DNA from: Sphagnum magellanicum
Lineage: Eukaryota > Streptophyta > Sphagnopsida > Sphagnales > Sphagnaceae
NCBI GenBank assembly: GCA_021904315.1
Contig: CM038912.1
Location: forward strand, 10,317,061-10,381,060
Length of the DNA stretch: 64,000 bases
Reading direction: 5' to 3'
The first letter of the stretch is position 1. The number at the start of each line of letters is the position of its first letter. This document shows positions 2,066 through 62,882 of this stretch, one piece after another. Both the position numbers and the translations under genes were made by a program. The notes beneath the pieces are model-generated. The model saw only the letters and a program-made list of their open reading frames with translations. It was not told the DNA's origin and made no database searches.

Positions 2066-2665
2066 GTTGGCATTCACTTCATTTGGTGCCAAAGTTGATG
2101 AGTCGGTAACAAGAGGCATTGGATCGTACTCCTTTTGCATTCAAGGTGAGCTTTATCACAAAATCGGATCCCTATGTCATGCCAAAGAATAGTGTTCACA
2201 GTTTACATAGTTATACATTCATGATACGGAGAGCCAACGTCAAAACTGCCATGCCGTTATGCCATCGCTTGATCCAACAACATTGGATCAATTGTTGACC
2301 ATCATGTACAATATTAATCCCTATGTTGAAGTGTTCAAAATGGCAAGGGATATGATGGCAATAGAAGGTGCTCCCACAAATCTGAAATTGCATCTCATTG
2401 GTTCTCGAACAAAGGATGTTTGCCGATACAATGTGCCGACGGCCGATGAAGTCGCTACATTAATGGTAGGAGATGGTTCTGAAGTTGTAGACAAATGTGA
2501 TGTCGTCGTTGTTCAACAAGCTAGCCCATTTCAACGCATTTCAGAGCTACATGTGGGATACATGGCTCTACATTATCCGTTGTTATTTCCTTATGGTGAA
2601 GATGGATGGCATCCAAATATTCCGCTCAATGGTGTTGTTGTTGATGGAAATTTGGATGAAGACCA

Positions 2666-4660: not shown

Positions 4661-4689
4661 TGAAACTATTTTGACTGTTGTGACAAACA

Positions 4690-9220: not shown

Positions 9221-10004
9221 AAGGTATACATAAGAAATTTCCCATAATAATGTCATTTTCAAATAATTTTAAGTTTTTTAAGTAACAAAGAACATTAATT
9301 ACATTTTTTTAAAAGTGTTTTTCAGTACTCCATATTCATTAGATCCATTTCAAATTTATTCAAATTTGGGCTCCACACTACTTTGCACTACCAATGATGA
9401 TCACTTGACATATGGTCAAAATCTTAATATATAAAAAAACTAAATGATTATGAAAAGAAAGATGATTAGTTACCTAGCACCATTAATCCATGATCATATG
9501 AAGTGTCCATGAAATCATATACATCTCCTTAAATTGGGTTATTCCTCCATTGCTTAAAGAATATCTAGGTGGTTGGCCTAACAAAAACCTAATCTTCAAT
9601 TTTCCAACCTACTATCATGTCCACTATGGGTTTAAATAGTTCCTTTATTCATGACAAACTTCAACCCCTTCACAATGGCACAAACACTAAAACAAACCTT
9701 GAAACCTACTTCCTTACTATTGGCATGACAACAACTTATCCAAAAAGTCCCTTCTTCCACTTTCATCCCCTATTTCTAATCCACATAAATTAACAATCGC
9801 AAGCCAATGGATAGTTGGGTGTGGGGAACTCTTCTTACACAACTATGGCTATGGTTCTTCCCTCCTTGCTTTAAATTCACCTCCTACCTACCTTGCACCT
9901 ACCTCACACACAAATCAACAATAATAACCTAAAGCATGACCACACAATCTTTTGTTTATATTTTCTTGAATATATATTTCATTCTTATATTATCCTTCTC
10001 TTTT

Positions 10005-10177
10005 TGTTGTGACCTATAGTGTCGTGACGTTCGGTGTCGTAAGGGTGTAAATCCATAGTAAACTCTAATGAACAAAACGACTAAAACTAGTCAAAGTAGA
10101 AACTAATCAACCAAAAAGAAATGCATGCACATATATATACAATGCACAAGAGGAGGTTGAGATGAAATTCTCATGTA
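10005..10177 (-). repeat. Terminal block A'' of the gypsy family
   Basis: 173 bp sharing sequence with 40558-40734 and 41028-41204. All three start TGT[C/T]GTGAC on the + strand. It directly follows the G18 polypurine tract in element orientation. Confidence 0.8.
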
Positions 10178-10195
10178 CCCCCCCCCCCCCCCCCC
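10178..10195 (-). other. Polypurine tract (G18 on - strand)
   Basis: A run of 18 C on the + strand sits between the PHD-finger reading frame and terminal block A''. It is equivalent to the 8-base run at 41205-41212. Its position fits the plus-strand primer of an LTR element. Confidence 0.65.
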
Positions 10196-10255
10196 AAGCC
10201 CTAAGTCGGGAAAAGCATGGCATGGTCTGAGTAGAAATCAAGGTGTTGCAGGAGA

Positions 10256-11005
10256 ACATGATGAACAGTACCAAATGTCGGTGGAAACTTGAATGAACTT
10301 TAGCTTGAGGCAAAATAGATGATATCCGCCATTACAATTATCACAAAGCAGCATTTAATCAACATCGTTTATCCTTTGACATACTTGACATGGATAGTCA
10401 AGTGGAGGAATCCAAGTTAACATGATGATGGTAGGGTCCAAGTTTGGCATGTGGCAGGGCGTATAGTTTTTGGAATGATCCCAAATTATGCGTCCGTTAG
10501 CTCTTTGCAACTCCAACACACCTGAATGCCTGATCGCCTTAATCCTCAAGATAGTGCGATTGGAAGAAATGTCTAGAGTATCATTAGGTTGTCGCTAGAG
10601 ATACACAAAATCACCAACATCAAATTGTCTCACCTTAGGTTTGTAACTGCCACCTCGTGTGTGTGCATACCGTAAGGTGTCTCGATGTTGTGCAATGGAC
10701 AAGTTCTCCATGGCCATGGGCAGAATCCTCCTGAATAAATCAGCCCTCTCTGCGATGACCCTAACCCAAGTGGATGGGGAGTCCAAATCCACAACCTGGT
10801 CCATTTGAATAGCAATGGAAGAGGGTGGAATGGGATGTTTCCCAAAAAGTAGAAAGTAAGGAGAAAAATGAGACAAAGAGGCATGTTTGGACATCTTGTA
10901 ATCCATGGTGATATAAGGTAGGGCCAGGTCCCAATCCTCTTTGTTCCCAGTGAGGCAAATCTTTCGAAGTCCCTTTTTGCATATCTAAACCATCCTCTCT
11001 ACAAG
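10256..11005 (-). pseudogene. Integrase C-terminal region plus PHD finger (copy 1)
   Basis: In - strand order it shows the end of the integrase core G-L-V-E-R-M-V, where the Glu codon (10997-10999) would be the third catalytic acid. Next comes the F-D-V-G-D-F-V-Y-L tract of the integrase C-terminal SH3-like part, then a Cys4-His-Cys3 PHD finger at 10390-10256. The PHD finger has C-x2-C, C-D-N-C, Y-H, F-C and W-Y-C-S-S-C. Stops occur at least near 10600 and 10351, and one comes right after the E-R-M-V motif. Relative to the copy at 41 kb this fragment keeps the integrase Glu and the PHD Trp, both lost there. Confidence 0.8.
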
Positions 11006-11019
11006 GCCACCTAGGTCGG

Positions 11020-40552: not shown

Positions 40553-40557
40553 ATTGT

Positions 40558-41025
40558 TGTCGTGACATGTAGTGTCGTGACGTACGGTGTCGTCAAGATG
40601 TAAATACGTAGTAAATTCTACTAAACAAAAAGATTAAAGCCATTCAAAAGGTATAAACTAATCAACTAAAAAGATATGCATGCACACATATATATACAAT
40701 GCACAAGTGAGGCTGAGATGAAATTCTCATGTATATTGAAATGCAAAGAAAGAAGGAAATGAACTATATGTAGACTGTGGCCATGCAATGGCCGCCGTGA
40801 GCATCTAGAAATCCTAGCTTATTATGGAGGAGGCTCCTGACAAAGGAATTCTAGAAAAACTAAAAGGAAAAAAAAAGGGTTGGGCCTTTTATACCGTCGC
40901 CAACAAACTGAAACCCTAAATACCTAATAACGTACAATCATCTAAGACCGTGTATTAACCCGAAAAGCGCACATGGGCATGCCTGTAACTAGCCATCATG
41001 TATGAGGCCATGTACGGGCATGATA
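40558..41025 (-). repeat. Candidate 3' LTR (blocks A + B)
   Basis: Block A is 40558-40734 and block B is 40735-41024. On the + strand it begins TGTCGTG and ends CATGATA (CATGACA in the partner copy). The ends would therefore be short inverted repeats TGTCRTG, as usual for LTRs. Block B contains GGTATAAAAGG on the - strand and is matched by 49776-50065. Block A has no partner at the 5' end of the element. Confidence 0.65.
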
Positions 41026-41027
41026 GT

Positions 41028-41204
41028 TGTTGTGACGTGTAGTGTCGTGATGTACGGTGTTGTAAGGATGTAAATATGTAGTAAATTCTACTAAACAAAA
41101 AAAATTAAAGCCATTCAAAGGTATAAACTAATCAACTAAAAAGAGATGCATGCACACATATATATACAATGCACAAGTGAGGCTGAGATGAAATTCTCAT
41201 GTAT
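41028..41204 (-). repeat. Extra terminal block A' next to the polypurine tract
   Basis: 177 bp nearly identical to 40558-40734. It sits between the polypurine tract (41205-41212) and the candidate 3' LTR, separated from block B by three bases (AGT). The same tract-plus-block arrangement is found at 10005-10195. See findings for interpretations. Confidence 0.8.
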
Positions 41205-41212
41205 CCCCCCCC
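41205..41212 (-). other. Polypurine tract (G8 on - strand)
   Basis: An 8-base C run on the + strand between the end of the PHD-finger frame and block A'. It is the counterpart of the 18-base run at 10178-10195. Confidence 0.6.
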
Positions 41213-41271
41213 AAACCTGAGCTGGGAAAAGCATGGCATGGTCTGGGTAGGAATCAAGGTACTGTAGGAAA

Positions 41272-41406
41272 ACATGATGAACAGTACTAATTGCAGGTGG
41301 GAACTTGAGTGAGCTCCGGCTTAAGGCAAAAGAAATGGTATCCACCATTACAGTTGTCACAAAGTAGCATCTGATCAGCATCGTCCGTCCTCTGACATAC
41401 TTGACA
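41272..41406 (-). pseudogene. C-terminal PHD finger of the integrase polyprotein
   Basis: In the pol frame directly after the integrase C-terminal part comes a Cys4-His-Cys3 array. It has C-Q-V-C, then L-L-C-D-N-C, then G-G-Y-H-F-F-C, then Y-C-S-S-C. The residues L-L-C-D and Y-H are classic for PHD fingers, which read histone H3 tails. The Trp before Y-C is replaced by a TAG stop, whereas the copy at 10 kb keeps W-Y-C. It occupies the place where chromoviruses carry a chromodomain, so a targeting role is an inference. The polypurine tract begins about 60 bases further on, so this was the protein's C-terminus. Confidence 0.88.
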
Positions 41407-42624
41407 TGGATAATCAAGTGGAGGAATCCAAGTCGATGTGATGATGGTAGGATCCAAGTTCGGCAGGTGGCGGGGCGCACAATTTTTGGAATGATCATGA
41501 ATAGTGCGTCCGTCAGCTCCTTGTAACTCCAAAACACCTGAAGGCTTGATCGCCTTAATTCTCAGGATAGTGCGACCGAAAGAAGTGTCTAAAGTATCAT
41601 TGGGTTGTCGCTGAAGATACACAAAATCACCAACATCAAATTGTTTCACCTTAAGTTTGTAACTGCCACCTCGTGTGTGTGCATATCGTAAGGTGTCTCG
41701 ATGTTGTGCAATGGACAAGTTCTCCATGGCCATGGGCATAACCCTCCTAAATAAAGTGACCCTTTCTGCAATGACCTTAGCCTAAGTGGTTGGGGAGTCC
41801 AAGTCCACAACTTGGTCCATTTGAGCTGCAATGGAAGAGGGTGGAATGGGATGTCTCCCAAAAAGTAAAAAGTAAGGAGAGAAATGAGATAAAAAGGCGT
41901 GTTTGGACATCCTGTATCCCATGGTGATGTAAGGGAGGGCCAGGTCCCAATCCTCTTTGTTCTTAGTGAGGCAAATCTTTCGAAGTCCTTTCTTGCACGT
42001 TTGAACCATCCTTTTTGCAAGGCCATTAGCTTGGGGATGATCTCTTGAAGTCCGACGATGGTCAATGAGAGCATGGTCAAGTAGGTCTTGGAATTATCCC
42101 TTGAATTCTGATCCTTGATCAGTAAGGCACTCAGCACAAGCCCCAAACCTACTTAGAACCTGTTGTAAAAAAGCCTGGTTGGTGCTATGTGATGACTTGT
42201 CTAATAGCGCAACAAGCTCAACCCACTTTGAAAAATGTTCAATCATAATCATGATGTAAACATTACCCCTAGAGGTTTGTGGTAACTCTCCAGCTAAATC
42301 ACATTACTAATGATAGAACATGCCTTGAATAAGGAGTGGAGAAAGCGTGAGCTGTCGAGAGGAGAAAGAAATTTTCACTTTATCACATTGTTCACACCTA
42401 GCAATGATGTCTCAGACTTGAACATATATTCCTCTCCAATGGTAATGAGGAGCGAGAAGGCTATAAGTACGTTTAACTCCAAAGTGTCTAAGCTCCGAGT
42501 GTACCTTTTGAATAAGACCAGGCCGTTCATGTGGTGGTGGAACCACTCTGTCACCTTGTGGTAAGCATCGGATGAGGTGATTGTCCTTCCATGAATAGCA
42601 TTTGGACCGCTGTTGTATGTGATT
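41407..42624 (-). pseudogene. Integrase (zinc-binding, core, C-terminal parts)
   Basis: In the pol frame, an N-terminal His/Cys zinc-binding motif (H-S-E-L-R-H ... C-E-Q-C) lies near 42490-42380. The core begins with C-D-L-A-G near 42300 (first Asp). It continues through L-T-D-Q-G-S-E-F near 42115 (second Asp) and H-P-Q-A-N-G-L-A-K-R-M-V-Q near 42040-42001. The residue at 42013-42015 is Lys where the third catalytic Glu is expected; the copy at 10 kb has Glu. The C-terminal part has F-D-V-G-D-F-V-Y-L near 41635-41610. Stops occur near 42300, 42105 and 41785. The enzyme would have joined cDNA to host DNA; this copy is inactive. Confidence 0.9.
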
Positions 42625-43173
42625 TCATTGACTTGACGTAACTTGGGGAGGGTATTCCCCATGTTGAAGAAACCTCAAAATGTCCAAGTCCTCCCATATA
42701 TCGAGAATGGGATGCTCAACCAGGTTACATTGCAATAGTGCAAGATAACTAGATGCCTCAGATACATGTACTGCTGGAATCTGGTCAAAATCTTGCCTGG
42801 TTTCTGAAAAATCTTTAGAGGTAGTGAGGGGTCTTCGTGACATGGTATCCGTATTCTGATGTGTAATACCAGGTTGGTGAATAACCTTGAACTCATATTC
42901 TTGAAGTATAAGCACCCAACGAGCTAATTTACCAATAAGCTTATCATTGGTCATCAACCACTTGATAGGTTGGTGATCGGTATACAAAGTGAAATTGGTG
43001 CCATAAAGATAGGGCCTGAAATGTATGACGACCCATACAACAGCAAGGCACTCCCCCTCGTATGAAGAGTAGTTGCTCTTAGCCTTGTTGTTGCTTCGAG
43101 ATGCATAGGCGATAACATATTCCTTACTTACCTCATCAAGTTGGCCAAGAATAGCCCCAATACTATGAGCACT
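42625..43173 (-). pseudogene. RNase H domain
   Basis: It continues the pol frame after a stop at 43174-43176. Visible are A-Y-A-S-R-S, the N-Y-S-S-Y-E-G-E-C-L-A-V-V-W tract near 43080-43035 (with the catalytic Glu), and Y-T-D-H-Q-P-I-K-W (42985-42960), as in gypsy RNase H. It ends in a tether reaching a stop at 42625. It would have degraded the RNA strand during reverse transcription. Confidence 0.9.
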
Positions 43174-44400
43174 CTAGTTAGTGTGTAGAATGAAAACCTT
43201 GTTGAAATCAGGTCTTCTCAGAATGGGGAACTCTAAAAGCTTTTCCTTGAATGTGTTGAAAGCTTCTTGAGCTTCATCACTCCATGTCCAAGCAACATCC
43301 TTCTTTAACAATGCATAGAGAGGATGAGCAATAGTACTAAAATCTTGGACATAAATTTTGTAATAATTACATAGTCCGATGAAGCTCCTCAACGTGTGAA
43401 CATAAGTAGGATTGGGCATTTCCAAAATGGCTACTACTTTGGCCCAATGAGCCATAATACCATTTGGCAAAATTCTATGTCCAAGGTAGATTACTGAGGT
43501 GACAAGAAACTCACACTTTTTAGGATGGATCTTCATATTGACTTCGTGGAGTCTCTTGAATAACTCCTTAAGATGATCCAAATGCTGCAGGAGTCCCTTG
43601 CTATGCACTAGGACGTCATTTATGTAGCACTTCAGGAAATCTTCCCCTTCACGAACCTGGTCCATGACTCGTTGAAAGAAGACAGGTGCATTCTTCAATC
43701 CAAAAAGCATCACAAGCCATTCCCATAACTTGTTACTTCCATGGAATGTTATTTTCTTGCGATCCTTCGCAGCGAGCACAATCTGGTTGAAACCTTGCCT
43801 TAGATCCACAATTGTGAAGATGTTTGAATCTCCAATGCTATCAAACAATTCTTCAGGGATGGGCATGGGGTACCTATCCTGCGGTGTAACTAGGTTCAAA
43901 GGCCTGTAATCCTCGCACATCCTTTTCTCAGTCCATAATCCAGCTAAATCTTTTTTTGCTGGCATTACTATAGCAGCTGCGAAATCAGAACTTGATGGCT
44001 GAATGAGACTGGCCTCATGGAGCTCTTTACATCTTTCATCTACCAGTTCCCATTCATGTTTGCTCAACCTATGCCTCCTTCGATAGACGGGTGTCTCATC
44101 TATAAGGTCTATAGAGAACTGCATGGTCTTACACCTACCTAAGTCTTTCATTGAGAATGCAAACACATTCTCATACTTAATTAGCAAGTTTGTGACTTGG
44201 TCTCTCTCCTTCTTGGTGAGCTGGTTACCCATAACCAAAGGGTAGTTGGAAACACATGGAATGGAGTTGGAAAGTGTGTTTGAAGAACCTGGTGTATTGG
44301 GTTCTCCATTATCCAACTGCGTAAATTCATAGAAGGTTGTAATTATTTCTCCAGAAGCTGATGCACCTCCAGGTGTATTAGACACAACTTGAGTAAAATT
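43174..44400 (-). pseudogene. Reverse transcriptase domain
   Basis: This lies in the longest open stretch of the element (44727-43174, 517 codons). RT motifs in order are Y-R-R-R-H-R-L-S, the M-P-A-K-K-D tract, D-Y-R-P-L-N, F-T-I-V-D-L-R-Q-G-F-N-Q-I, F-G-L-K-N-A-P-V-F-F-Q-R-V-M, and the catalytic box. The box at 43615-43626 reads Y-I-N-D instead of Y-x-D-D. The first catalytic Asp is thus Asn, consistent with one G-to-A change, and abolishes activity. Thumb motifs Y-L-G-H and L-R-S-F-I-G-L follow. The family is gypsy-type by motif content and by the downstream order. Confidence 0.93.
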
Positions 44401-44544
44401 ACATGGTACCTCCTCCCCCCTAACACTGAGAGTGAAATGTAGAGTGTTGAAGATAGGCAAGTGTACTTGGTCGGGGTGCCATGTGGTTACATCGCTAGAA
44501 TTGCAAGTTGATTGAATCAGTGTTGGTATTGTGTACATTTGAAA

Positions 44545-45500
44545 GAATACACAAGTTACCAACAACCATGTAAGAGAGTTCAAGTCCATGCCTCTCCCTA
44601 GTAGAGCATTACGCTCCAATCTAGTCACCTTAGTGTGACTAGTAGTGCCAGCTTGGAACCCCATAGCCCTTTCTCTTTCTTCTGGGCTTGGTTCATCCCA
44701 AGTGGCTGAAGCATGACGATACACCATGCCTGGCCCATCTCCTTGAAAGGCGTGTGCTCATGGGAAGGAGACAAAGGTGGGCCAAGCACTTCTTAGTTTT
44801 CCTATTGTGTTCGCAGGAAACCAAGGAGGTTTTTCTTACCTTGTAATTGGTTGGCAAGAACTTTGATTATCCAATATGTGAAAAACCTATAGATTCGGGT
44901 CTCTGATAGTGTATTTCAGAGCTAGCTGCAGAACTGAGAGTGGTGCCAAGTTGGTCCACTAGTTGCGCAGCCGTTGCGCATAGGAACCGCATTGTGCCGC
45001 ATCAAGTAAGAATGGCTCTCCAAGGTAATGCTTGATCAGTGTGTAGTGCTCCTGCACTTTCTCCTTCTAATCGAGCTGAGAAGGAGTGTTCTCAATTACA
45101 TAACCAAGTGTAGGAGAAATGGATTGAGCGCAGGTGATCAATCGTATCATGTCCGTGAAAAAACCAGATCTTGTGTCATTCAAGCCTTTTCCAAATCTAG
45201 CCGCTAAAAATACTTGACACTCCGAACTTGAAATGATGAGGTCGACAGGGCCAAGTAATTCCATATGCTTCTTCTGAATTAGTTGTATGTCAGAGGGCAA
45301 AAATGTGAAACTAGCCTTCCATGCGGTGGTTGCAAATTGTTGCGGAAATCTTGTTGTGAACTCCTTCATTCTTGATGTCGCCACTTGCCTTGCAATAGGA
45401 TCAATGTCTATTTAGAAATACCTTCAAACCACCATCCTTGACTGTAGCAGGGTTTCGAGACCTATACCAATACCACCAAAGAGCTCTAGTAATGTAATCC
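44545..45500 (-). pseudogene. C5 cytosine DNA methyltransferase domain inside pol
   Basis: All motifs lie in one frame, the pol frame. Motif I is L-L-E-L-F-G-G-I-G at 45492-45445 (AdoMet binding). Motif II is I-D-I-D-P-I-A near 45411-45391. Motif IV has the catalytic Cys in S-E-C-Q at 45217-45219, followed by G-K-G-L-N-D-T-R-S. Motif VI is I-E-N-T at about 45094. Motif VIII is C-G-S-Y-A-Q-R-L-R near 44991-44965. Motif IX is S-P-E-E-R-E-R-A-M-G-F near 44685-44650, and motif X is L-L-G-R-G-M-D-L-N-S-L near 44600-44567. Order I to X is canonical, unlike plant DRM enzymes. Pro before the catalytic Cys is Glu. Seven in-frame stops lie at 45424, 45412, 45067, 44959, 44887, 44836 and 44758. Confidence 0.88.
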
Positions 45501-46626
45501 CTTCCTTCGGTGGTGTCCAGGTGATTAGCTGACGAAGTAATGGCTTAATAGGTTCGCCATGGCTCTCCATGCTCTCAAAACTAGACAAAGCTTTGACCAA
45601 GGGCTTGTGGGCTACTTTGAACCTTTGTACAACCACTGGTCCATGTTGAATGTTAGTAGGAACCACCTTCAAGCTTTTAGTAGCTTGAGCGTAAGCTATC
45701 TCCTCCTCATCTCCCTCTATCCATTCGTGGCTAACTTGTTGGATGTAAGAAATGGTGTGTGCTTCCTTGAGCATACAATGGTGAGCCATAGGACTATGGT
45801 TACCATGTAAATCAAGGGGTATATATCCTAGGTGGTGGCCATAAGTCTCCCAATCCACTCGGTAGTATGCATGTTCGAACCAGTTGTCAATTGTGAAACC
45901 TGGTGGAAATAGGGCCTCTTGCCCAATGAACACATCATAACTTGTGGCATTGGTGACTAAACATCTGACCTATAATAAAAGTTCTTGATCTGTACCTTCA
46001 TTGAACTTAAGTGCAATCAAATCCGAGCTTTCCCCAAGTACCTCCTCTACGCTCCCACTAGCGATGTGAATCTACCACATAGATTTTCGTAGTTTGGAAT
46101 CAAGCATGCCCATCTTTTTGGCGAATTGAACTCCAAGAATCACTGGTTGGGCACCTATGTCAAGAAGTACCACTCTGGGTGTATGTCCTCCCACTTGGAT
46201 TGTTGACCCGGAATTATCGATAATGGCAACTCCGGTGGCGATGGAAGTTCTCTCAGTAGGCACCACCTTCGGAAATGAGTGAAAGACTTTATGAAAAGAA
46301 TGGCTATCCACAACACCTTTGCTGAGTAATAAATCCACAAGTGAGGTGTTCTGAACTCCCTTCTGATATGTGAATGTAAAATCAGAGGTAGGAAAGCCCA
46401 CTAGTTTAGCCATGTTATAACTAGTGACCAGATTACGAACGCCATCTGCAACACGTGAGCCAATCGAATGTCTCTCCAAGGTGTTGGATGGGACCTCTGT
46501 AACATGTGGATCAAGGATTGGTAGAAGACCTGATGTAGTGTTCAAGGTATCCTCTAAGATTGCAATTATGTCTTTGGTGCTTAGCTTCAAATCTTGAAAA
46601 CTAAACAATGGTGTATACACAAGCTT
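45501..46626 (-). pseudogene. Aspartic protease region and linker to the methyltransferase
   Basis: Pol frame. The retropepsin-like tract V-V-L-L-D-I-G-A-Q-P-V-I-L-G has its Asp codon at 46159-46161. It carries D-I-G where active enzymes have D-[S/T]-G. It continues to S-Y-D-V-F-I-G-Q-E-A-L-F-P near 45945-45905, the usual end of the plant gypsy protease fold. Stops interrupt at 46072 and near 45957. From about 45900 to 45500 an unassigned linker of roughly 130 residues leads into methyltransferase motif I without leaving the frame. Confidence 0.8.
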
Positions 46627-47235
46627 TTACGCCATTTCATGCATTTGAAGTTGGTATTCCATAAGCTGATCAGTGGAAAATTGTGTGTTTTCCTGATGTA
46701 CATGTACTCTTGGGACACGAGAATTTGATGCCCTAACAGCTTGTAGTGTAGTATTCTCCTCCCCCCTCGCCAACAAGGTGCATTCTTCTTCCATGTTGAG
46801 AGGACGAAAAGATTGTGGCATGACTGCTCGAACTCCTCTAGCCCTGGTAATAGGACTTGAACCGGATGCGAGTCCATCAGTCTGAATTACCTGCCTAGTG
46901 GCAGAAACTCTAGGTGCCACACTAGCTTCTTGTGCCGCGACATAGGAAGGGCAAAAAGAAGTAGCAAATTCTGGTGTGAGACTAGAATTGCGTGGAGTGG
47001 AAAGAACATACTCCCCAACCATGGCATCGTGTGGAAGGCCATAGCATGACCTAGGAGGTCCCTCTTGTGATCCTGAACCTTGTACAGGTTGGGCATGACT
47101 AGCTGGTTGGGAGGACTTGCCTTTTAGATTAGCAAGTTGAGCCCTCAATGATTCGAGTTCATTTTGTAAAGTCTGAACTTGAATTACATGGGCTTGAAAC
47201 ACCTCCCTCTTGTTAGCATTGTGCTCTTTTAGCAT
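46627..47235 (-). pseudogene. Start of pol: coiled-coil and low-complexity segment
   Basis: The pol frame can start at an ATG (47235-47233) that overlaps the end of gag. The first part contains a heptad-like, Leu/Glu/Gln-rich stretch (V-Q-T-L-Q-N-E-L-E-S-L-R-A-Q-L) that should form a coiled coil. It is followed by Ser/Gln/Gly-rich sequence. The stop at 46627 separates it from the protease. The upstream continuation of this frame over 47236-47556 is a shadow of the gag zinc knuckles. Confidence 0.65.
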
Positions 47236-48661
47236 TCTTGTTGGAATTACCCTTGGTGGGCAAAGCCTGAGTGGAAGGCTGAGGTGCCTTGGCTTTTGGT
47301 TGAGGGATAGTGGAAGATGCTGGCAGATTTTACCACTGTAATCGGAATCGCTTCCGCTCTGGGAACATGGCAAAACAAACAGATTCCTGATGTCCCTCTT
47401 TCCCACAATAATCACAAAAGAGATTTTCGGAAGGAATGTTGCATTCACTAGCTTTGTGGGCACGATTGCCATAGTAATTGCAAGAAGGTAGGATGGGTGT
47501 AGCCGAATGCACCGCTTTAGTCCTTGAAGAAGAATGAGATGATCTAGTTGGCGCAATTGGTGTAGGTTGAGGCCTTGAACGTGATGGAGGCCTCATAGTG
47601 TTGGCCTCATAGTGTGCATGAGCCAGTTCCAACTTTTCGGAAATGTTGTACACATCCAGCAAAATGTACGAGTCTCCAAATTCTGTAAAGACCCGTTGCA
47701 AAACCTACGCGTGGAATGTTGGAGTACTTTCCAACGAACGAAGATACTGGTGGGCAGCTTCCAAGTCGGTGACGCTTTGGGTATCCTCTTTGAGTTTGAG
47801 AGTTATCTTCTTGTAAAGCATCTTGAGGGTTTCATCCTTCTGCCGAGAGAAGGTGGCGGGCTACAGAATTTTTTTAGAACTTTTGACTGGAAATTCCAGC
47901 TCAAGAATTCAAAAGAATTCCCCCACTGGATCAGCAAAAGCTAGTGCATCGGTGGTGGGAGGAATGTTTGTAGTAGCAATAATGAGTTGTTGACGAGAAA
48001 GGTTTACTGAGGTAGGTACCGGGTCTGGATTATTCAACACAGTCCCGTGATGTGCAATTGCAGCTTGCAATGCAACTTGAGAGGTGGTGGCAATGGTTAT
48101 GGGGTAAGCTGGATTGGGAATCTGGGTGACACCCAAAATCCTTGCAGAATGTTGTTCGTAAACATCCAATGCCTCATAGTGCACATAACGAGCCAATTGT
48201 TTGAATGCAAATGCCTCGGTGTAATTAGCGCCATACTTGAGCTCCAATTCTCAAACCACAGTTGAGAAGGTTGCCTTGAACTCCCTCAAAGAAATAGTAC
48301 CTGGCCTTCCGTTGAACTTTTCAATTCTCCTAGAGGAACTGCTGACCTCCATGGTGTATATGGGTGTTGAAGTCACAGCTTGCAATGGAGTATATGGTGA
48401 TGGTGCAAAAGTAGGTGCAACAATAGGCGTACCCCACTAATTAACCCCTCCAAATGGACTTTGATGTATTGTTGATGTAGTGTATCCTAAACCTGAATTC
48501 TTGGTAGGAGTTGTACTAAATGACGATGGTGCTATGGATGCTTGATGGCACCGTCCTGAAGATTGTGAGCTTAAAGAAATCGGCTCAAAGGATTGTGTGT
48601 TACTTTGTAGTTGATACCTGGGCTCTTGCCGATCGATAGTGCTCTCATCATCCGAGGACAT
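47213..48661 (-). pseudogene. Gag with capsid region and two CCHC knuckles
   Basis: One frame from ATG 48661 to TAA 47213 with six internal stops (48437, 48251, 47909, 47861, 47705, 47330). The Ser/Thr/Pro-rich N-terminus is followed by a capsid-like stretch. That stretch has K-F-N-G-R-P-G-T and L-R-E-F-K-A-T-F near 48320-48270, then an all-helical tract to about 47640. Knuckle 1 is C-N-Y-Y-G-N-R-A-H-K-A-S-E-C (second Cys replaced by Tyr) and knuckle 2 is C-D-Y-C-G-K-E-G-H-Q-E-S-V-C (intact). It forms the particle and packages RNA in intact elements. Its end overlaps the pol start in the +1 frame. Confidence 0.85.
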
Positions 48662-48835
48662 GGTGTTATCCCATGCCCTAAAATGTTGTGATAGTACACA
48701 ACATTAATTACAAAATTCTAACACAATGTACAATTTGAAGAATAAAGTGTGTTGTTGGGAATGACCCGTGACACACAGAAATCGCATGAAAGTCAAACAG
48801 ATGTTGGATGAAAAGGCATGATGGCAAAACAGTAC

Positions 48836-49110
48836 GTAGGATGGCAGGGCGCAGGACGGTAAGGCACAAGACATAGGACGGCAAGGTGTAAGATGTAGGA
48901 CGACAAGGCGTAAGATGTAGGACGACAAGGCGTAGGATGTCAAAATAGTACATAGGACGGCAAGGTGTAGGATGTCAAAATAGTACATAGGACGATAGGC
49001 GTAGGACGTAGGATGATAAGGCGTAAGGCGTTAGGACAATAGGACGCAAGACCACAGGGCGTCAGGATAATAATACGCAGGACGTAGGACGTCAAGACAG
49101 CAGGATGCAG
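48836..49110. repeat. Minisatellite, unit near GTAGGACGGCAAGGC (15-30 bp)
   Basis: Many copies of words such as GGACGGCAAGGC, GTAAGATGTAGGAC and GATGTCAAAATAGTACATAG in tandem. Two longer units (about 55 bp) recur near 48930-48990. Clearly richer in GGAC and GGC than the surrounding DNA. Confidence 0.75.
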
Positions 49111-49260
49111 GATCAATGGATAGAAGTTCAGTTCGATGGATAAAAGTTCGGTCTAACGGAGAAAAGTCGGACGGACGTCGAACGGAAATCAGACGAATGT
49201 CCGATGGACGTCAGACGGAAGTCGGACAGACGTCGGATGGAAGTCCGACTTACGTCGAAC
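49111..49260. repeat. Minisatellite, unit near GTCGGACGGACGTC (12-24 bp)
   Basis: Repeated words GGACGTC, CGGAAGTCGGAC and GATGGACGTCAGACGG, many of them partly palindromic (GACGTC). CpG-dense. Confidence 0.7.
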
Positions 49261-49324
49261 ATGCAAAGCTCAACCATCGTAGGGGCAATGGTGGGCAGTG
49301 GCACTACATTGCAGCTCCTCGCAA

Positions 49325-49490
49325 TGCAACGTTATAGCGATGGCCAGGAGCGTTGTAGTTCACAACGTTGCTACGGCGCTAGCCGGCAACGCGCTGTAGC
49401 TTGCAACGTTGTTGCGGCAACGTGCTGGACTTCACAACGCTGCTGTAATGTTCGACAACGCACTGCAATTTTGGCCAATGTTGCGCTGTA
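49325..49490. repeat. Repeats of GCAACGTTG / GCAACGCGCTGTAG words
   Basis: About 165 bp with recurring, partly palindromic AACGTT and GCAACGCGCTG words. CpG-rich, unlike the AT-rich surroundings. Confidence 0.65.
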
Positions 49491-49775
49491 ACGTTTTTTT
49501 TTTTTTTTAAATTTTTTATTCGACAACTTGAAGAAAAAAAAAAAATGGGAGAAAGAGAGAAGTTTTGACACTTGCTCTTTAGTGTCCCAACTTCATTTGT
49601 CTTGGCTTTGTTGGTTGTAAGAAACGCAAGCTCCCTCCAACAACACTAGTAGCAACAGTAGTAGCGCGCTCCTTCCGGCAGCAACAACATGAGTAGTAAC
49701 AACTTAGGAAATTCAAAAGCATAAGAAATCTGTTGCTTTCAACATGAAGCAACAGGGAATACAATTTTTCTAAAA

Positions 49776-50066
49776 ATTGAAATGCAAAGAAAGAAAGAAA
49801 TGAACTATATGTAGACGGTGGCCGTGCAATGGCCACCGTGAGCATCTAGAAATCCTAGCTTATTATGGAGGAAGCTCCTAACAAAGGAATTCTAGAAAAA
49901 TTAAAAGGAGAAAGAAAGGGTTGGGCCTTTTATACCGTTGCCAACAAACTGAAACCCTAAGTACCTAATAGCGTACAGTCGCCTAAGACCGTGTATTAGC
50001 CTTAAAAGTGCACATGGGCATGCCCGTAACTGGCCATCATGTATGAGGCCATGTACGGGCATGACA
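49776..50066 (-). repeat. 5' terminal block B' (partial 5' LTR)
   Basis: 291 bp collinear and nearly identical to 40735-41025. On the - strand it starts TGTCATGCCC next to the target duplication. Block A, which completes the left LTR, is absent; unique leader sequence begins at 49775 instead. Confidence 0.8.
49919..49943 (-). promoter_or_regulatory. TATA box of the gypsy element
   Basis: On the - strand GGTATAAAAGGCCC lies in terminal block B' and is conserved in block B near 40890. It is followed within about 50 bp by a pyrimidine-rich run. This is the expected start of element transcription toward gag. Confidence 0.65.
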
Positions 50067-50070
50067 TTGT

Positions 50071-53037: not shown

Positions 53038-53872
53038 GTATGTCTGTTTTTGTGAAGCTCAAACTTGTGGGTGATTTTATTTTTTGTTGTTTTGCGATTT
53101 CGTTTGGTGTCGTGTCTTTTCTGTTTGGTCTCAGTGCTCTGCAGTTTGAGATGTCTTTTCTTTTTGGTGTAAAGTCTTGGATTTACTGTCTGGGATGTGT
53201 TTGCATGACTTCAAGCATCTTCCCAAATATTTTCTTCTTTCTCTTCTTCACACGAAATATCTGCAAAGTGCATGGAATTTCGGTTCTGTTTTAGGGTTTT
53301 TCGACGCGTTGTTGGTACTTCCTCAATGCTCTGCAGTTTGAATTGTCCTTTCTTTCGGGTGCATTTGTAGTGTTGGATTTGCTGTTTTGGATGTGTTTGT
53401 ATATCTTCAAGCATCTTGCAGAATACTTTCTTCTTCTTCACAAAAAAGATCTGCCAGGTAGCACGGTCATGGAATTTCGGTTTTGGATTAGGGTTTTTGG
53501 ACTTGTTGTCGGTACTTCTTCAATGCTCTGGGGTTTGAAATGTCTTGTTTTGTGTTGGGTGCATTTATAGTCTTGATTTTCTGTCTTGGATGTGTTTGTG
53601 TGTCTTGCATCTTGCAGAATATCTTCTCCTTCTTCACGTGAAAAATCTGCAAAGTAGCATTGCCATGGAATTCTGGTTTTGGTTTAGGGTTTTTTGGACT
53701 TTGTTTCACTGCAGAGTAGCTATTTCTTGGGTTCTGATGTTTTCTCCATGTTATGGGCTTTTGTCTTGCTTCAGAGTTGAGATCTTGGATTCTGATTTTT
53801 TCTACGTTGTACTTAATCTTGCTCCACACTCGATTTGTGGATTCTGATGGTTTTTTTGCCATCTGGTTACAG
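53038..53872 (+). other. Putative 5'-UTR intron of MAP1
   Basis: Donor GTATGT at 53038 and a T-rich acceptor, GGTTACAG, ending at 53872. The next exon would run into the MAP1 ATG at 54044. T-rich content and the tandem units inside are compatible with a plant leader intron. Confidence 0.5.
53133..53710. repeat. Three tandem units of about 190 bp in the MAP1 leader
   Basis: Units begin near 53133, 53328 and 53518 with TCAATGCTCTGCAGTTTGAAATGTC. Each continues through GTCTTGGATGTGTTTG, CATCTTGCAGAATATCTTC, TTCTTCAC, ATCTGCAAAGT and CATGGAATTTCGGTTTTGG, then TTAGGGTTTTTGGAC. Small indels separate them. The ORFs in this region are by-products of the repetition. Confidence 0.85.
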
Positions 53873-54043
53873 ATTGGGAGTTAACAGAAGTGGAAGTTGT
53901 CTAAACCACCTCATCTGACTATGCCAACAACAACAAGACCAACAGGATTGAAGAGCTGTAGGCACAAAGAGAGCTAAAAGACATTAAGGTTGAATTTTGG
54001 AAACTTTGGATTGTGAGGAGAAGAATAAGTGAAAGGGGAGGTG

Positions 54044-55258
54044 ATGGAAGGCAGCAGGAATCAGGATGCAGATTCAGGACGGCAGCTGGCTTGTGTGCGC
54101 TGCAGCAAAGTGGCCAAACTTCAATGTCCAAAATGTTTGGAACTGAAGCTCCCTCGAAGTAATGCATCTTTTTGCTCACAGGAATGCTTTAAGGAGTCGT
54201 GGATCATGCACAAGCCTCTGCACAGCCAGCTGGAGCTGCAAAACAATGCATCAGGAAATGGTGTTCATGATCAGTATCTGCAGGGTTGGATGTACTGCCT
54301 TCGCAAGGGTCAAGCTCGTAGCACACAGCTGCCTTATTTTGCTTGGACAGGACCTTTGAGGCCATATCCCATCTCACCAAGGCGGCTTGTCCCAGAAAAC
54401 ATCCAGCGACCTGAGTGGGCATCTTCGGGAAGACCTCAGCAGGAGATGGTTAGTGAGTGGCAAACCAGTGTGGAAATCAAGAGTGCAGAGCAAATAGCAA
54501 GATTGCGACATGCTTGCAAGGTTGCCCGTGATGTGTTGGATGCAGCAGCAAGAGCAATCAAGCCAGGGGTAACAGCAGACAAGATAGATGAGATTGTACA
54601 TGATGCTACAATTTCTGCTGGGGCTTACCCTTCGCCTCTGAACTATCATTTCTTCCCAAAATCCTGCTGCACATCTGTGAATGAAGTTGTCTGCCATGGC
54701 ATTCCAGATTCCAGGCAATTGGAGGAGGGTGATATTGTCAATGTGGATGTGACTATCTATCTGAATGGGTGCCATGCTGATTTGAACGAGACATATTTTG
54801 TAGGCAAAGTAGATCAGGCATCAGAAACTTTGGTTCGAACTACCTATGAATGCCTGGAGAAGGCCATTGCCATTGTGAAGCCCGGTGTGCGTTACCGTGA
54901 AGTTGGGGAGGTCATCAGTCGGCATGCATCTCTGGCTGGTTTATCTGTGGTGAAGTCATATTGTGGACATGGAATAGGAGAGCTATTCCACTGTGCACCT
55001 AACATACCTCACTATTCTCACAACAAAGCTGTGGGAATGATGAAGGCAGGTCAAACATTCACCATTGAACCCATGATTAATTCAGGGGTATGGCGTGATC
55101 GCATGTGGCCAGATGGGTGGACTTCTGTGACTGCAGATGGCAAACGCAGTGCACAATTTGAGCATACACTTTTGGTTACAGAGACAGGAGTTGAAGTTTT
55201 AACAGCTCGTGTTCCAAGCTCTCCAAATGTTTTCCCTTGGCTGAATAATAGCTTATAA
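54044..55258 (+). CDS. MAP1: Methionine aminopeptidase type 1 (cytosolic, zinc-finger form)
   Basis: Removes the initiator Met from nascent proteins at the ribosome. The 404-aa protein is uninterrupted. I start at ATG 54044 because the frame opens upstream only with GTG. Residues 17-60 form the N-terminal C6H2 zinc finger (C17, C20, C28, C31, C44, C48, H56, H60) that associates eukaryotic MAP1 with ribosomes. The pita-bread catalytic domain spans about 140-395. Metal ligands D235, D246, H309, E342 and E373 are all present, as are H202 and H218 of the active site. Residue 203 is Phe in Y-H-F-F-P-K-S, where I remember Gly in the family. The coding part has no intron, which is unusual for a plant MAP1 and may mean a retrocopy, although there is a possible leader intron. 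It looks intact and functional. Confidence 0.93.
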   Translation: MEGSRNQDADSGRQLACVRCSKVAKLQCPKCLELKLPRSNASFCSQECFKESWIMHKPLHSQLELQNNASGNGVHDQYLQGWMYCLRKGQARSTQLPYFAWTGPLRPYPISPRRLVPENIQRPEWASSGRPQQEMVSEWQTSVEIKSAEQIARLRHACKVARDVLDAAARAIKPGVTADKIDEIVHDATISAGAYPSPLNYHFFPKSCCTSVNEVVCHGIPDSRQLEEGDIVNVDVTIYLNGCHADLNETYFVGKVDQASETLVRTTYECLEKAIAIVKPGVRYREVGEVISRHASLAGLSVVKSYCGHGIGELFHCAPNIPHYSHNKAVGMMKAGQTFTIEPMINSGVWRDRMWPDGWTSVTADGKRSAQFEHTLLVTETGVEVLTARVPSSPNVFPWLNNSL

Positions 55259-57700: not shown

Positions 57701-60700
57701 GATTAGTAGATACGTAGTAAAACCTTAAACCCTAAACCCTTACGTACCTATGTATAAATCGGTGTTGTGTGGTTGTTAAGTTTTAGGAGGAACCTTGGGT
57801 TTTGGTTTTGGAAAAGTTTATGGGGGTCGATTCCAGTTTCAGTTAGGTTTAACATCATTGGAAACAATGTAAAAAATAAAATAAAGTAATTTATAAAAAA
57901 ATTTAGATTGCTTCAAAGCTTTTATAAGGTCAAAAATTAAGCTAAACTAATCTATTAAAATGGATCAATACCATTTCTTTTATGCCAATTAGTTTCATGT
58001 CTCATGCATTTGTCTGCGAACTTTGAAATGTGTCTTGCCACCCTTGAATTCAGCCCTCAAAACCCCTCAACTAGCCCCTAAATACCCTCCAAACCACCAC
58101 CTTAAAAATCCCCAAATGCACCCCCTTTTGGCCCCAAAACTAGGATCACATGAATTAAATCTTAGTTTTGGGACAAAAAGATCACAATGAACCATAACAA
58201 CTAGGGTTACCAACATGACATTGTCAGGATAATTCTTGTAGATGCTTATAAGTATTTGAAGATTATCCATGCCCAACCAAAACCACTATACGTTTGTGGA
58301 AATATTGAAATACTCAAGACTTTTTCTACTTAAATCTAAAAACTAACAATCCCCAAAATTTGTCAAATTACAAACCCAACATAAGAATAACATACCTCAT
58401 GGGCTCTCCACCATGCAAGTGGATCTTTGCATTCGTCTTCAATGATCACAATGACAACCAAGATCCCAATAATTAGGCATATCTAGGCCTTTTGCACTTG
58501 TGGGCTCTTCTTATAATCAATGTCCCCATGAGCCTCCACTTTGTACCATTTATTGCATTTTGTACAATACATAATTAAATAATTTAATGCCTTGGGTTAA
58601 GAGAAAAAAATTATATTTTATAACATTAAATGGATCAAAGGAAGATTTAGGGTTAAATAGATCTCTCAAACATTTATGACTTTTTGCAAACACATCTTTT
58701 TTGATATTAATTAAATTCAAGGTAAGGTTAATTTAGGATAGAAGAATCATGAACCATATATTGAACAAATGAAACTTATTTCTTCTCTTTTGAAGGTGAG
58801 GGAAAACATTTTTTAATTTGGAAAGATTCAAATTAGAAGTTAAGAAATAAATATTTTCCTTCAATTGTTAAAATTCTTGATTTTTTAAACTTTGATTTAT
58901 AATTCATAATTAGCTCATCTAAAATAATTTTTGTATAGTTGTCATGTGTAAGGTTTTATAATTAAGGTTTAAGATGTTTTGAAAGTGATGCATCTTTAAG
59001 GTTTAATCTATAACAATACTCAAGGTTTTTATTTTACTTGGAGTTGTGGTTTAATTTAGGATTGGAAAGCTTTGCAAGGAGAATGTTATCACCTTGGATC
59101 ATAAAATTAAAAGTTTTTTTTTTCCTCTCCTTCATTTCTTTCATTCATGTGTGGTTTTAATTTAATTATAATTCAATTAGTTTCATGTATTGGATCAACA
59201 TGTGAGTATAACCTAAATTTTTAAATTATTATTAGAGAAGATATTAAGTTAGCAAATGTTTAATCCTAGTTCAAGAAATCTACCTGTTGTTATTAGTCAT
59301 GAATATGGGTATTGCAAGAATGGGTCCCAATCCAATGTGTGTTTTAGTTTTGAAATGCAAGTATTGCAAGATTGGGTCCCAAGTCTAGTGTGTGTTTTAA
59401 TTTTGGAATGCAAATATTGCAAGTTTGAGTCCCAAGTTTAATGTGTGTTTTAGTTTTGCAATGTTAATATTGCAAGGTTGCATCCCAAGTTCAATGTGTG
59501 TTTTAGTTTGAAATGCAAGTATCGCATTTGGTTGGGTCCCAAGTCCAAGGTGTGTTTTAATTTAGAATGTAGGTATTGTAAGGTTGGGTCCCAAGTCTTG
59601 TGTGTGTGTTTAGTTTGAAATGCAAGTATTACACTTGGTTGGGTCTTAGGTTTATTGTATGTTTTAATTTGGAATGCAAGTATTACAAGGTTAGTTCCCA
59701 TGTCCAATGTGGGTTTTAGTTTTGGAATGCAAATATTACAAGGTTGGGTCCTAAGTCCAATGTGTGTTTAAAGTTGGTATGTGGGTATTGTAGGGTTGGG
59801 TCCCAAGTCCAATGTGGATTTAAGTAATTGGCATGTAGATATTGCAAGTGGAACATTTACATTCTTAGTGTTGTTATTAGTTTGGCATGTAAGTATTGTC
59901 CATCTAAGTTCTATGCATAGTGTATTGATTATGCAAGTATTAACTAGTTATGTATTCCATTAATAATCATGGTATAATGAAAAAAGTGGGTATTGTAGGT
60001 GCATGTTTTTACAAGTTTATAAACATGGGTTGTATTTCCAAATCATAATCAATTCAAATTTAAAGCCCAGTAAAATCTCTTTTTCAAATGTGGATTTGGT
60101 ATGGACTTCAAAAGTGAGGCATGGGGGCACAAACAAAGTGTTGATCAAAATTGCATACATAGCACATGCAAGTGTGTGTGAGTTCTTGGAAGGTGAATGA
60201 GATTATGTGGAAACCCCAGTGGAGTGGAACATGCACAAAAACTTGCCCCCACAAAAGGATATAAAGACCCCATCAATTAAAAACCACCTTAACCATACTT
60301 GGTATAATGTGATGTTCCATGAATTTTTTTTTGTTTTTTAAATGTCCTTCACAAACATGGCCTAATGTGGTTGAACTATGTTTAACCATCAAACACACTG
60401 TGAACAAACATGAATCGGCACATGGCCAACAAGATCTGAAATTGCCAATTCACATATCACAATATGCATTTTGAATTTCACAATCTTTGAAAGATTGCAT
60501 TTGGACTCAATTGAGTTTAAATCACACTATTTAACAAATTTATGACAAGCACAAAACAATTTGGTGAAAACATGTGAATGTTTGAAAAGCCATGATAACT
60601 TCATTTGACAACAAGACATAGCGTATTTGAATTGGAAACATAAGAAAGGGAGTTGACAATTTCACAAAAACCTAGCCATTTCAATTTGATTTTGAGCTTT

Positions 60701-61274: not shown

Positions 61275-61545
61275 GTGTGGCCGTCAGGGAAAACGAGAGC
61301 GGCGGGAAGGAAGGAAGGACAGCTAGCGGCGCGTATTTTGTTTATGAGGAAGCCGTCAGGGAAAACGAGAGCGGAAGGAAAGAAGGACAGCTCGCGGCGT
61401 GATATTGCTGATTATGAGTAATCCGTCGGGGAAAACGAGAGCGGAAGGAAGGAAGGACAGCTCGCGGTGTGTATTGTTGTTTATGAGTAAGCCGTAAGGG
61501 AAAACGAGAGCGGAAGGAAGGACAACTCGCGGCCTGTACTTTGTA
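61275..61545. repeat. Four tandem units (66-71 bp) upstream of the F-box gene
   Basis: Units contain GCCGTCAGGGAAAACGAGAGCGGAAGGAAGGAAGGACAGCTCGCGGCGTGTATT...GTTTATGAGTAA, starting near 61281, 61351, 61423 and 61489. GC-rich and CpG-containing, unlike the rest of the spacer. Confidence 0.85.
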
Positions 61546-61754: not shown

Positions 61755-62882
61755 ATGGAGGTGAGAATGGAAGGGATGTTATGGGGGAGCTTGCCTGAGC
61801 ACATCCTGGACAGAGTGTTGACCATGTTACCCGTGAAGAGCTTGTTCCGTTTCAGGGCTGTGTGCAAGAGATGGAACGACTTCCCGTCTTCCCACAGCTT
61901 CTTAGATGCATGCTCATCGGATCAACCTAAATGTTGTGAGACATGGCTGGTTGTGACAAATTCTCACAGATCATTCGCATACAATCCCTACTCTAAGAAG
62001 CTGTCCAATCTGGCCCCTCCGCTGTTCCAAGACTTGTGGTACTCTGACTTCCTTGCGAGCAGTGAGGGACTAATCTTGCGGGCATCATCATCATGCTCTC
62101 CTCAGGATGGAACGCTCCAGGCTGCTGCCAGTAGTATCCACATCTGTAACCCTTTTACAGGATTTGTGAGGCAGTTGCCTCAGGCAGTTGGACGGCCATG
62201 TGCTGCTCAAATCCTGATAGATCCCAGTGGCCACAGATACCGCATTGTTGCACTCTGTGTGCAGCAATCTGATACCAGCCAGCAGGAGGAGCCACATAGA
62301 TGGTCATTAGAGTCTTACAATTCAGTGGGCAACTGCTGGCAGGTGTTGTGTAGCAAAGTTCCAGTTGAGATCATCATGCAGGATACAATAAGCATGGTTG
62401 TGTGTAATGAGATAGCATACTGCGCCATTGGTGTACGCATTCCTTCTGATGTCTGGGAATTCCATTTTCAGACAAGCACTTGGTATCGTGTTGGGTTACC
62501 AGCTTTGCCAGCTTACGCCAGGTATCATCTTGTGGGATGTCAGGGGAGGCTACTTCTGGTGGCTAGGATCAAAGAACAACAACATCCAGATGCAACACTC
62601 ATAGAACGAATCCACATCTGGCAGCTTGAACAGAGTAAGAAACTATGGACCCACATGCTTGAAGTTCCTGATGAGATGCTGGGCCAAATGGGAAGCCGAG
62701 GCTGGGCCTTGAGTTGCTGTGCATATGGGGACTTACTCATCTTGATTTTCAAGGATATGTTGTGGACCAAGATTCTGGTCTACAACTTCACTACAGACCA
62801 GATTCACTGTGGACCTTGTCTGTACACTGTCTTATCCACCACAGAGTTTCTCTTTTACCCCAGGCTATCTGCGTTGGTGTGA
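61755..62882 (+). CDS. F-box protein, F-box/kelch-like group
   Basis: A 375-aa, intronless frame starting at ATG 61755 with a good context (A at -3, G at +4); ATG 61767 is an alternative. Residues about 10-52 form the F-box (W-G-S-L-P-E-H-I-L-D-R-V-L ... L-P-V-K-S-L-F-R-F-R-A-V-C-K-R-W). This motif docks the protein to SKP1 in an SCF ubiquitin ligase. The rest shows the alternating W/Y/G pattern of the plant F-box-associated or kelch-like beta domain. Examples are A-Y-N-P-Y-S-K-K near 75, I-C-N-P-F-T-G-F near 131, W-E-F-H-F-Q-T-S-T-W-Y near 235, and I-W-Q-L-E-Q-S-K-K-L-W near 290. This part would select the substrate, which cannot be predicted. The gene is preceded by a GA repeat and a four-unit array, and appears intact. 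Confidence 0.9.
   Translation: MEVRMEGMLWGSLPEHILDRVLTMLPVKSLFRFRAVCKRWNDFPSSHSFLDACSSDQPKCCETWLVVTNSHRSFAYNPYSKKLSNLAPPLFQDLWYSDFLASSEGLILRASSSCSPQDGTLQAAASSIHICNPFTGFVRQLPQAVGRPCAAQILIDPSGHRYRIVALCVQQSDTSQQEEPHRWSLESYNSVGNCWQVLCSKVPVEIIMQDTISMVVCNEIAYCAIGVRIPSDVWEFHFQTSTWYRVGLPALPAYARYHLVGCQGRLLLVARIKEQQHPDATLIERIHIWQLEQSKKLWTHMLEVPDEMLGQMGSRGWALSCCAYGDLLILIFKDMLWTKILVYNFTTDQIHCGPCLYTVLSTTEFLFYPRLSALV

What the first reader, a model, noticed from the sequence alone, without database searches (positions are those of the whole stretch)
44545..45500. A gypsy retrotransposon carrying a C5 DNA methyltransferase within its pol polyprotein
Between protease and reverse transcriptase, in the same frame as both, all major C5-methyltransferase motifs occur in the order I, II, IV (catalytic Cys), VI, VIII, IX, X. 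From memory, retrotransposons with captured cytosine methyltransferases have been reported in dinoflagellates (Symbiodinium) and the charophyte Klebsormidium. A plant gypsy-order element with the domain fused inside pol would be a striking land-plant case. It might let an element methylate its own or host DNA, for silencing evasion or controlled dormancy; that role is inference.
Basis: partly seen in the sequence, partly recalled or inferred. Interest (0 to 1): 0.93.

Follow-up and report, generated by a model that had tools for sequence, protein, structure and literature searches.

The report
Moss retrotransposon with built-in DNA methyltransferase
A peat-moss jumping element carries its own DNA-methylating enzyme inside its replication protein, and relatives occur in liverworts and green algae, which matters because methylation is what hosts normally use to silence such elements.

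The parts
40558..50066 (-). whole element, termini TGTC...GACA, 9509 bp
   Evidence: repeat structure, termini and TSD
50067..50070 (.). 4-bp target-site duplication at the 5' end of the element (ACAA on the minus strand)
40554..40557 (.). 4-bp target-site duplication at the 3' end of the element
49776..50066 (-). terminal repeat B (5' end), holding a TATA-like box (+ strand ttttatacc near 49929-49937)
   Evidence: 91.6% to 40735-41043; sequence read
47375..47482 (-). two zinc knuckles of gag, the first with one Cys changed
   Evidence: translation, frame 0
46090..46200 (-). aspartic protease, weak in this copy (LLDIGAQP)
   Evidence: Asp_protease_2, 14.5 bits, below its cut-off of 24.3; L013 has DTGA and gag-asp_proteas at 30.8 bits
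44524..45531 (-). C5 methyltransferase domain, DNMT3-type, 7 stops in this copy
43471..43929 (-). reverse transcriptase
   Evidence: RVT_1, 82.7 bits
42625..43282 (-). RNase H, interrupted by a stop
   Evidence: RT_RNaseH_2 26.8 bits (below its cut-off of 29.8) and RT_RNaseH 29.2 bits
41740..42560 (-). zinc-binding and DDE integrase, broken in this copy
   Evidence: translation; Integrase_H2C2 and rve in the corresponding part of L013; 5 stops in the aligned integrase part
41305..41406 (-). PHD finger at the end of pol
   Evidence: PF00628, 37.3 bits
41205..41212 (-). G8 tract directly before repeat A', probable polypurine tract
   Evidence: sequence; same place in L012
41028..41204 (-). repeat A' (inner copy)
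   Evidence: 93.4% to 40553-40734
41026..41027 (-). 2-bp spacer of the A-B junction (AC here, GC in other copies)
40735..41025 (-). repeat B (inner copy)
40558..40734 (-). repeat A (terminal copy, 3' end)

Best explanation
It is a decayed copy of a multi-copy gypsy-type retrotransposon family of a peat moss whose pol polyprotein carries a DNMT3-type cytosine methyltransferase between protease and RT, and a PHD finger behind a DDE integrase. Shown: presence at the same place in the family copies examined, DNMT3 fold (predicted), conserved catalytic Cys and motif VI Glu, purifying selection, split repeats, 4-bp TSDs. Inferred: (1) one ancient capture of a DNMT3-type domain by a green-lineage gypsy ancestor, then one move of the domain within pol (about 65%); (2) the enzyme is active on DNA (about 55%) and methylates the element's cDNA or its insertion site, as a self-mark or self-restraint rather than a shield from host silencing; (3) the cDNA is circular when integrated: LTR = A.GC.B, the integrase cuts at the A^GC^B palindrome, a one-LTR circle gives B-int-A and a two-LTR circle gives B-int-A-B-A (about 45%). 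The confidence below is for the identification and its family-wide nature.
Against: The window's own Pfam score is marginal. Motif IV has Glu, not Pro, before the Cys, so activity is not assured. KnitGypsy-Dnmt3 showed no activity in yeast, judged inconclusive by its authors. The two-LTR-circle model also predicts B-A-B-int-A, not seen at 15 resolved 5' ends nor at 2 of family two. L019 has no TSD. The RT-MTase rows are not one clade once outgroups are added: P0163 and P0094 fall outside. No RT outgroup and no plant DNMT3 could be included.
Confidence: 0.9

Rival explanations
1. The two pol orders reflect two independent captures of related DNMT3-type genes by two gypsy lineages, as de Mendoza et al. 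proposed between other retrotransposons, not one capture and a move.
For: The two orders coincide with deep splits in the MTase, RT and (but for P0176) integrase trees; recurrent capture is documented.
Against: With DNMT3A and two DRMs as outgroups all retro domains form one clade (0.992) on a long stem, and GW(E/P)CQ is shared by both orders. Outgroups were only three.
Confidence: 0.3
2. The methyltransferase is no longer an enzyme but a conserved structural or nucleic-acid-binding part of pol, or it acts on RNA.
For: Glu replaces the near-universal Pro of motif IV (universality recalled) in 82 of 114 domains; KnitGypsy-Dnmt3 gave no DNA methylation in yeast.
Against: Catalytic Cys, motif VI Glu and the AHRxRxxW region are almost invariant; a domain kept only for binding need not keep them.
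Confidence: 0.3
3. The split repeats arise without a circle, for example by cleavage of linear cDNA at both inner A-B junctions, or by a PAT-like template mechanism that directly yields B-int-A-B-A.
For: The product B-A-B-int-A, expected from free choice of junction in a two-LTR circle, was not seen at 15 resolved 5' ends.
Against: Linear A.B-int-A.B cDNA has no third A to give B-int-A-B-A; PAT elements are recalled to use a tyrosine recombinase and no TSD, unlike here.
Confidence: 0.45
4. A private insertion of a methyltransferase gene into one element copy, or a chance resemblance.
For: The window match alone is only just above the Pfam cut-off.
Against: The domain is at the same place in the copies examined.
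Confidence: 0.01

Closest known systems
KnitGypsy-Dnmt3 of Klebsormidium nitens (de Mendoza et al. 2018, PMC5890265; parts 1-2 of the text, sections 10 and 11 and passages read)
   Same: Gypsy domains, a Dnmt3-related domain inside Pol, intronless, purifying selection, repeats described as DIRS-like.
   Different: Here a land plant; two families in one genome; relatives in chlorophytes; PHD finger and GWECQ seen; TSDs and two insertion forms resolved. Position of the domain in the Klebsormidium Pol and its motif IV could not be compared (figures and supplements not held).
SymbioDIRS-Dnmt3 of Symbiodinium (same paper)
   Same: Dnmt3 domain in Pol; split repeats; shown active on CG in yeast.
   Different: Tyrosine recombinase and DIRS-type RT; here a DDE integrase with 4-bp TSDs.
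DNMT3A/DNMT3B catalytic domain
   Same: Predicted fold, motif order, AHRxRxxWxNL region.
   Different: GW(E/P)CQ instead of SPCN; no other DNMT3 domains matched in the L013 parts scanned.
PAT/DIRS split-direct-repeat retrotransposons
   Same: Order of repeat halves B-int-A-B-A.
   Different: DDE integrase and TSDs; a B-int-A form also occurs.

Membership tests
C5 cytosine methyltransferase (PF00145) | Match above the curated cut-off | tested here: met
   22.4 bits in the window, 38.2 in L013, cut-off 22
C5 cytosine methyltransferase (PF00145) | Catalytic Cys in motif IV and Glu in motif VI | tested here: met
   Cys in 113 of 114 (one gap), Glu in 114 of 114 domains
C5 cytosine methyltransferase (PF00145) | Pro-Cys dipeptide in motif IV | tested here: not met
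   Glu-Cys in 22 of 22 window-family copies; Pro in 27 of 114 domains
DNMT3 | Motifs in the order I to X, not rearranged as in DRM | tested here: met
   host DRMs with rearranged order
DNMT3 | Catalytic fold closest to DNMT3 | tested here: met
DNMT3 | Grouping inside the DNMT3 clade in a tree | tested here: inconclusive
   Only one DNMT3A fragment and two DRMs as outgroups
DNMT3 | De novo methylation activity | not testable with these tools
   needs an assay
Ty3/gypsy LTR retrotransposon | Protease, RT, RNase H and DDE integrase in this order | tested here: met
   L013 pieces scanned apart
Ty3/gypsy LTR retrotransposon | Identical full LTRs at both ends | tested here: not met
   B-int-A-B-A and B-int-A
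Ty3/gypsy LTR retrotransposon | Short TSDs from the integrase | tested here: met
   4 bp in 12 of 13 copies
DIRS/PAT | Split direct repeats | tested here: met
DIRS/PAT | Tyrosine recombinase in place of DDE integrase, no TSD | tested here: not met
   Integrase_H2C2 and rve; TSDs
KnitGypsy-Dnmt3 | Dnmt3-type domain in a gypsy Pol with DIRS-like repeats | tested here: met
   against the description
KnitGypsy-Dnmt3 | Sequence clade with the Klebsormidium elements | not tested
   No hit named Klebsormidium in three protein searches; no sequence at hand

The most novel reading that the evidence does not exclude
A green-lineage-wide clade of retrotransposons, older than the chlorophyte-streptophyte split, has kept one captured DNMT3-type enzyme with a distinctive Glu-Cys active site, moved it once within pol, and inserts through a DDE integrase that cuts a circle-junction-like palindrome (GACA.GC.TGTC) inside its own LTR. 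That would be the old circle-junction integration model realised in nature, with the enzyme at hand to methylate the circle before integration.
Probability: 0.3. Interest if true: 0.9.

Novelty: new variant of a known kind. Interest (0 to 1): 0.74.

Why it matters
Retroelements that encode the host's own silencing mark were known, from the print seen here, in dinoflagellates and one charophyte. Finding them in abundance in a moss, and relatives in liverworts and chlorophytes, turns an algal curiosity into an old association of the green lineage and brings it into experimentally tractable plants such as Marchantia. The GWECQ active site is a variant that can be assayed directly. TSDs on split-LTR insertions make it testable whether a DDE integrase can use a circle junction, a long-standing question from retrovirology (recalled).

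Tried and rejected
Rejected: private insertion or chance; a DRM-like rearranged enzyme (motif order I to X; host DRMs differ). A bacterial or phage origin is not favoured, since M.MpeI and HhaI score below DNMT3 in fold, but it was not formally tested.

Led nowhere: Rfam scan, no match. IMG/VR: the P0067 scan gave no relative; the alignment scan gave 48 distant loci, 25-49% identical over parts, which I take to be phage enzymes and did not follow up. GTDB genome scan: no relative. A rooted RT tree with methyltransferase-free gypsy elements could not be made because the genome search was unreachable. The repeat structure of the RT-MTase (chlorophyte-type) clade could not be examined, as only proteins were available. 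Paper searches for earlier reports in land plants or chlorophytes: the only direct report among the listed titles was PMC5890265. One search listed 25 of 1,392 papers and 15 of 16, supplements were not held and subscription papers are mostly missing, so absence from print is not shown.

Dropped rows: one search counted 14 copies with both ends, but L010's stretch starts inside repeat B, so its 5' end is not in the data; I count 13. L009, L011, L014, L020, L021, L027 and L028 lack a full pair of readable ends there. In one search I gave the script the first 100 of the 146 RT rows. The trees used only domains at least 80% complete and of known order; 16 rows with methyltransferase and integrase but no RT were counted with the RT-MTase side.

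Full report
Observation. The minus strand of 41-48.4 kb, translated in three frames, shows the methyltransferase motifs in the order claimed, between protease and RT and in their frame. Pfam gives PF00145 on ORF 45067-45384 (22.4 bits, cut-off 22), RVT_1, RNase H and, at the end of pol, a PHD finger. The match in the window alone is thin; the case rests on the relatives.

Host. The window lies in an assembly of 438,994,042 bases in 31 contigs; contig C20 has 4.72 Mb. Sphagnum divinum is listed at 439 Mb (a table passage of PMC13120521) and has 20 chromosomes with a sex chromosome of about 5 Mb (passages of PMC9946827). In the main text of that genome paper 'methyltransferase', 'gypsy' and 'retrotransposon' occur 0 times.

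The family. A search of this genome with PF00145 gave 124 matches (123 of 387 candidates scored), host genes included: two of them, L002 and L005, look like DRMs. With the domain of one open copy (L013) 103 of 1162 candidates were scored; they gave 104 rows, 79-100% identical, 12 of them without an inner stop. I fetched 20 copies of 10 kb, chosen by long frames around a PF00145 match. One carries a single 2379-residue frame with zinc knuckles, protease, methyltransferase, RT, RNase H, integrase and PHD finger. The window copy is 88.7% identical to it in the domain and has 7 stops there. Of the 100 best RT matches (146 scored of 4016 candidates) 73 have a scored methyltransferase match within 2.6 kb upstream, a lower bound because of the scoring cap. 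Six of the other 27 were fetched: four cover the whole domain, all broken into two or more frames; one (L043) lacks its start; one (L039) shows only its last part, at 70% identity. I saw no protease-RT junction without the domain, but 21 of the 27 were not looked at. A second family, L001/L003/L004, 41-42% identical in the domain, has GWPCQGHS and ENV and also ends in integrase and a PHD-like finger (L035, by eye).

Relatives. Three protein searches returned 66, 31 and 89 proteins, 176 distinct; only about 8,000 candidates sharing most words were scored. Named sources are Marchantia polymorpha, Calypogeia fissa, Sphagnum troendelagicum, S. fallax, Closterium, Haematococcus lacustris, Monoraphidium neglectum and, by its identifier, Chromochloris; one is a bacterial MAG (P0137, which I take for eukaryotic contamination); most others carry no host name. 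Domain order over the 176: RT before MTase 88, MTase before RT 19, MTase and integrase only 19, MTase only 50. Pfam confirmed the order in the six proteins scanned (P0043 and P0010 MTase-RT; P0067, P0070 and P0082 RT-RNase H-MTase-integrase-PHD; P0058 RNase H-MTase-integrase-PHD). Named proteins with both domains: 9 of 9 streptophyte ones (5 Marchantia, 1 S. fallax, 3 Closterium) are MTase-RT and 3 of 3 chlorophyte ones RT-MTase. FastTree trees split the two orders without error for MTase (114 rows, 15 MTase-RT, support 0.997) and RT (90 rows, 10, support 0.981), and with one exception, P0176, for integrase (98 rows, 7, support 0.885). With a DNMT3A fragment and two Sphagnum DRMs as outgroups all retro domains form one clade (0.992) and MTase-RT is a clade (0.942), while the RT-MTase rows are not one clade: P0163 and P0094 fall outside. 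One capture followed by a move within pol is the simplest reading; two captures are not excluded.

Ends. In the window the repeats read, on the element's strand, B - coding - A' - B - A. Of the 20 fetched copies 8 show B-int-A-B-A (L010, L012, L016, L018, L022, L023, L024, L026) and 8 show B-int-A (L011, L013, L015, L017, L019, L020, L025, L027); L009 and L014 are cut by the stretch, L028 ends in B, and L021 has most of B inverted at both ends. Resolved ends read TGTC...GACA with few changes; 4-bp TSDs match in 12 of 13 copies with both ends: 8 of 8 B-int-A-B-A and 4 of 5 B-int-A, L019 being the miss. The inner A-B junction is exactly GACA.GC.TGTC, a palindrome, in 7 of the 12 copies that show one, the window not among them, and in family two, whose L001 copy is B-int-A-B-A (TSD TTTC) and whose L003 copy is B-int-A (TSD CTTG). 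A G8 tract stands directly before A' and a TATA-like box lies in B. So the reverse-transcribed LTR should be A.GC.B, and the integrase ends lie inside it. Cutting a one-LTR circle at A^GC^B gives B-int-A; cutting a two-LTR circle gives B-int-A-B-A, or B-A-B-int-A if the other junction is cut. The last was not seen at 15 resolved 5' ends, so the model needs a directional cut or is wrong. De Mendoza et al. noted DIRS-like repeats in KnitGypsy-Dnmt3 without a mechanism in the text I saw.

Resident copies. Between the two A's or the two B's of a copy 113 of 156 differences are transitions, and C/T differences make up 11% of CG, 13% of CHG and 3.6% of CHH sites (direction of change not known). That is the footprint expected of host CG and CHG methylation; the element's enzyme does not appear to keep copies unmethylated. 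The repeats of the window copy differ at 30 of 464 positions, those of L012 at 5 of 486, so the window copy is old and others are young.

Mechanism. De Mendoza et al. showed CG methylation in yeast by SymbioDIRS-Dnmt3 domains and none by KnitGypsy-Dnmt3, which they call inconclusive; they suggest methylation of the cDNA. By analogy I think methylation of the element's own cDNA, or of its target, most likely, with self-restraint or self-marking as the gain; the PHD finger may steer integration to chromatin. All of that is inference.

Novelty. The kind is published (KnitGypsy-Dnmt3). What I did not find in print in the searches made are land-plant and chlorophyte members, the two pol orders, the Glu-Cys active site and TSD-defined split-LTR insertions. 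The Marchantia methylome paper names five host methyltransferases (MET, two CMT, two DRM), and the passages of it that I saw mention no element-borne ones.

Noticed in passing
window 10001-11009: A second, truncated fragment of the family: one A repeat, the PHD and integrase end of pol, 85% identical to 41027-42025.
   Followed up: partly
window 49730-49755: Just inside repeat B, where a primer-binding site would lie, is a perfect 9-bp inverted repeat (CTGTTGCTT...AAGCAACAG, 8-base loop), also seen in L012; no tRNA-like PBS was recognised by eye.
   Followed up: no
L021 1-309 and 8975-9424: A copy in which most of repeat B is inverted at both ends.
   Followed up: no
protein P0176: A polyprotein of order MTase-RT-integrase with a divergent motif IV (AEPPCQGVS) whose integrase falls outside the MTase-RT group: a possible separate capture.
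   Followed up: partly
window 41305-41406 and polyproteins P0067, P0070, P0082, P0058: A PHD finger closes pol in both domain orders, where chromoviruses carry a chromodomain (recalled); it may be a chromatin reader.
   Followed up: partly
G000, rows: Stops in broken copies are mostly TAG and TAA, few TGA, as C-to-T change at CAG and CAA would give; not counted formally.
   Followed up: partly
window 2259-5869: ORFs resembling Helitron replication and helicase proteins (recognised by eye, not scanned).
   Followed up: no
window 54029-55258 and 61755-62882: ORFs resembling a methionine aminopeptidase and an F-box protein, probably host genes (by eye, not scanned).
   Followed up: no
window 53130-53701, 59309-59823, 61280-61536: Minisatellite arrays with units of about 197, 53/107 and 70/139 bp.
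   Followed up: no
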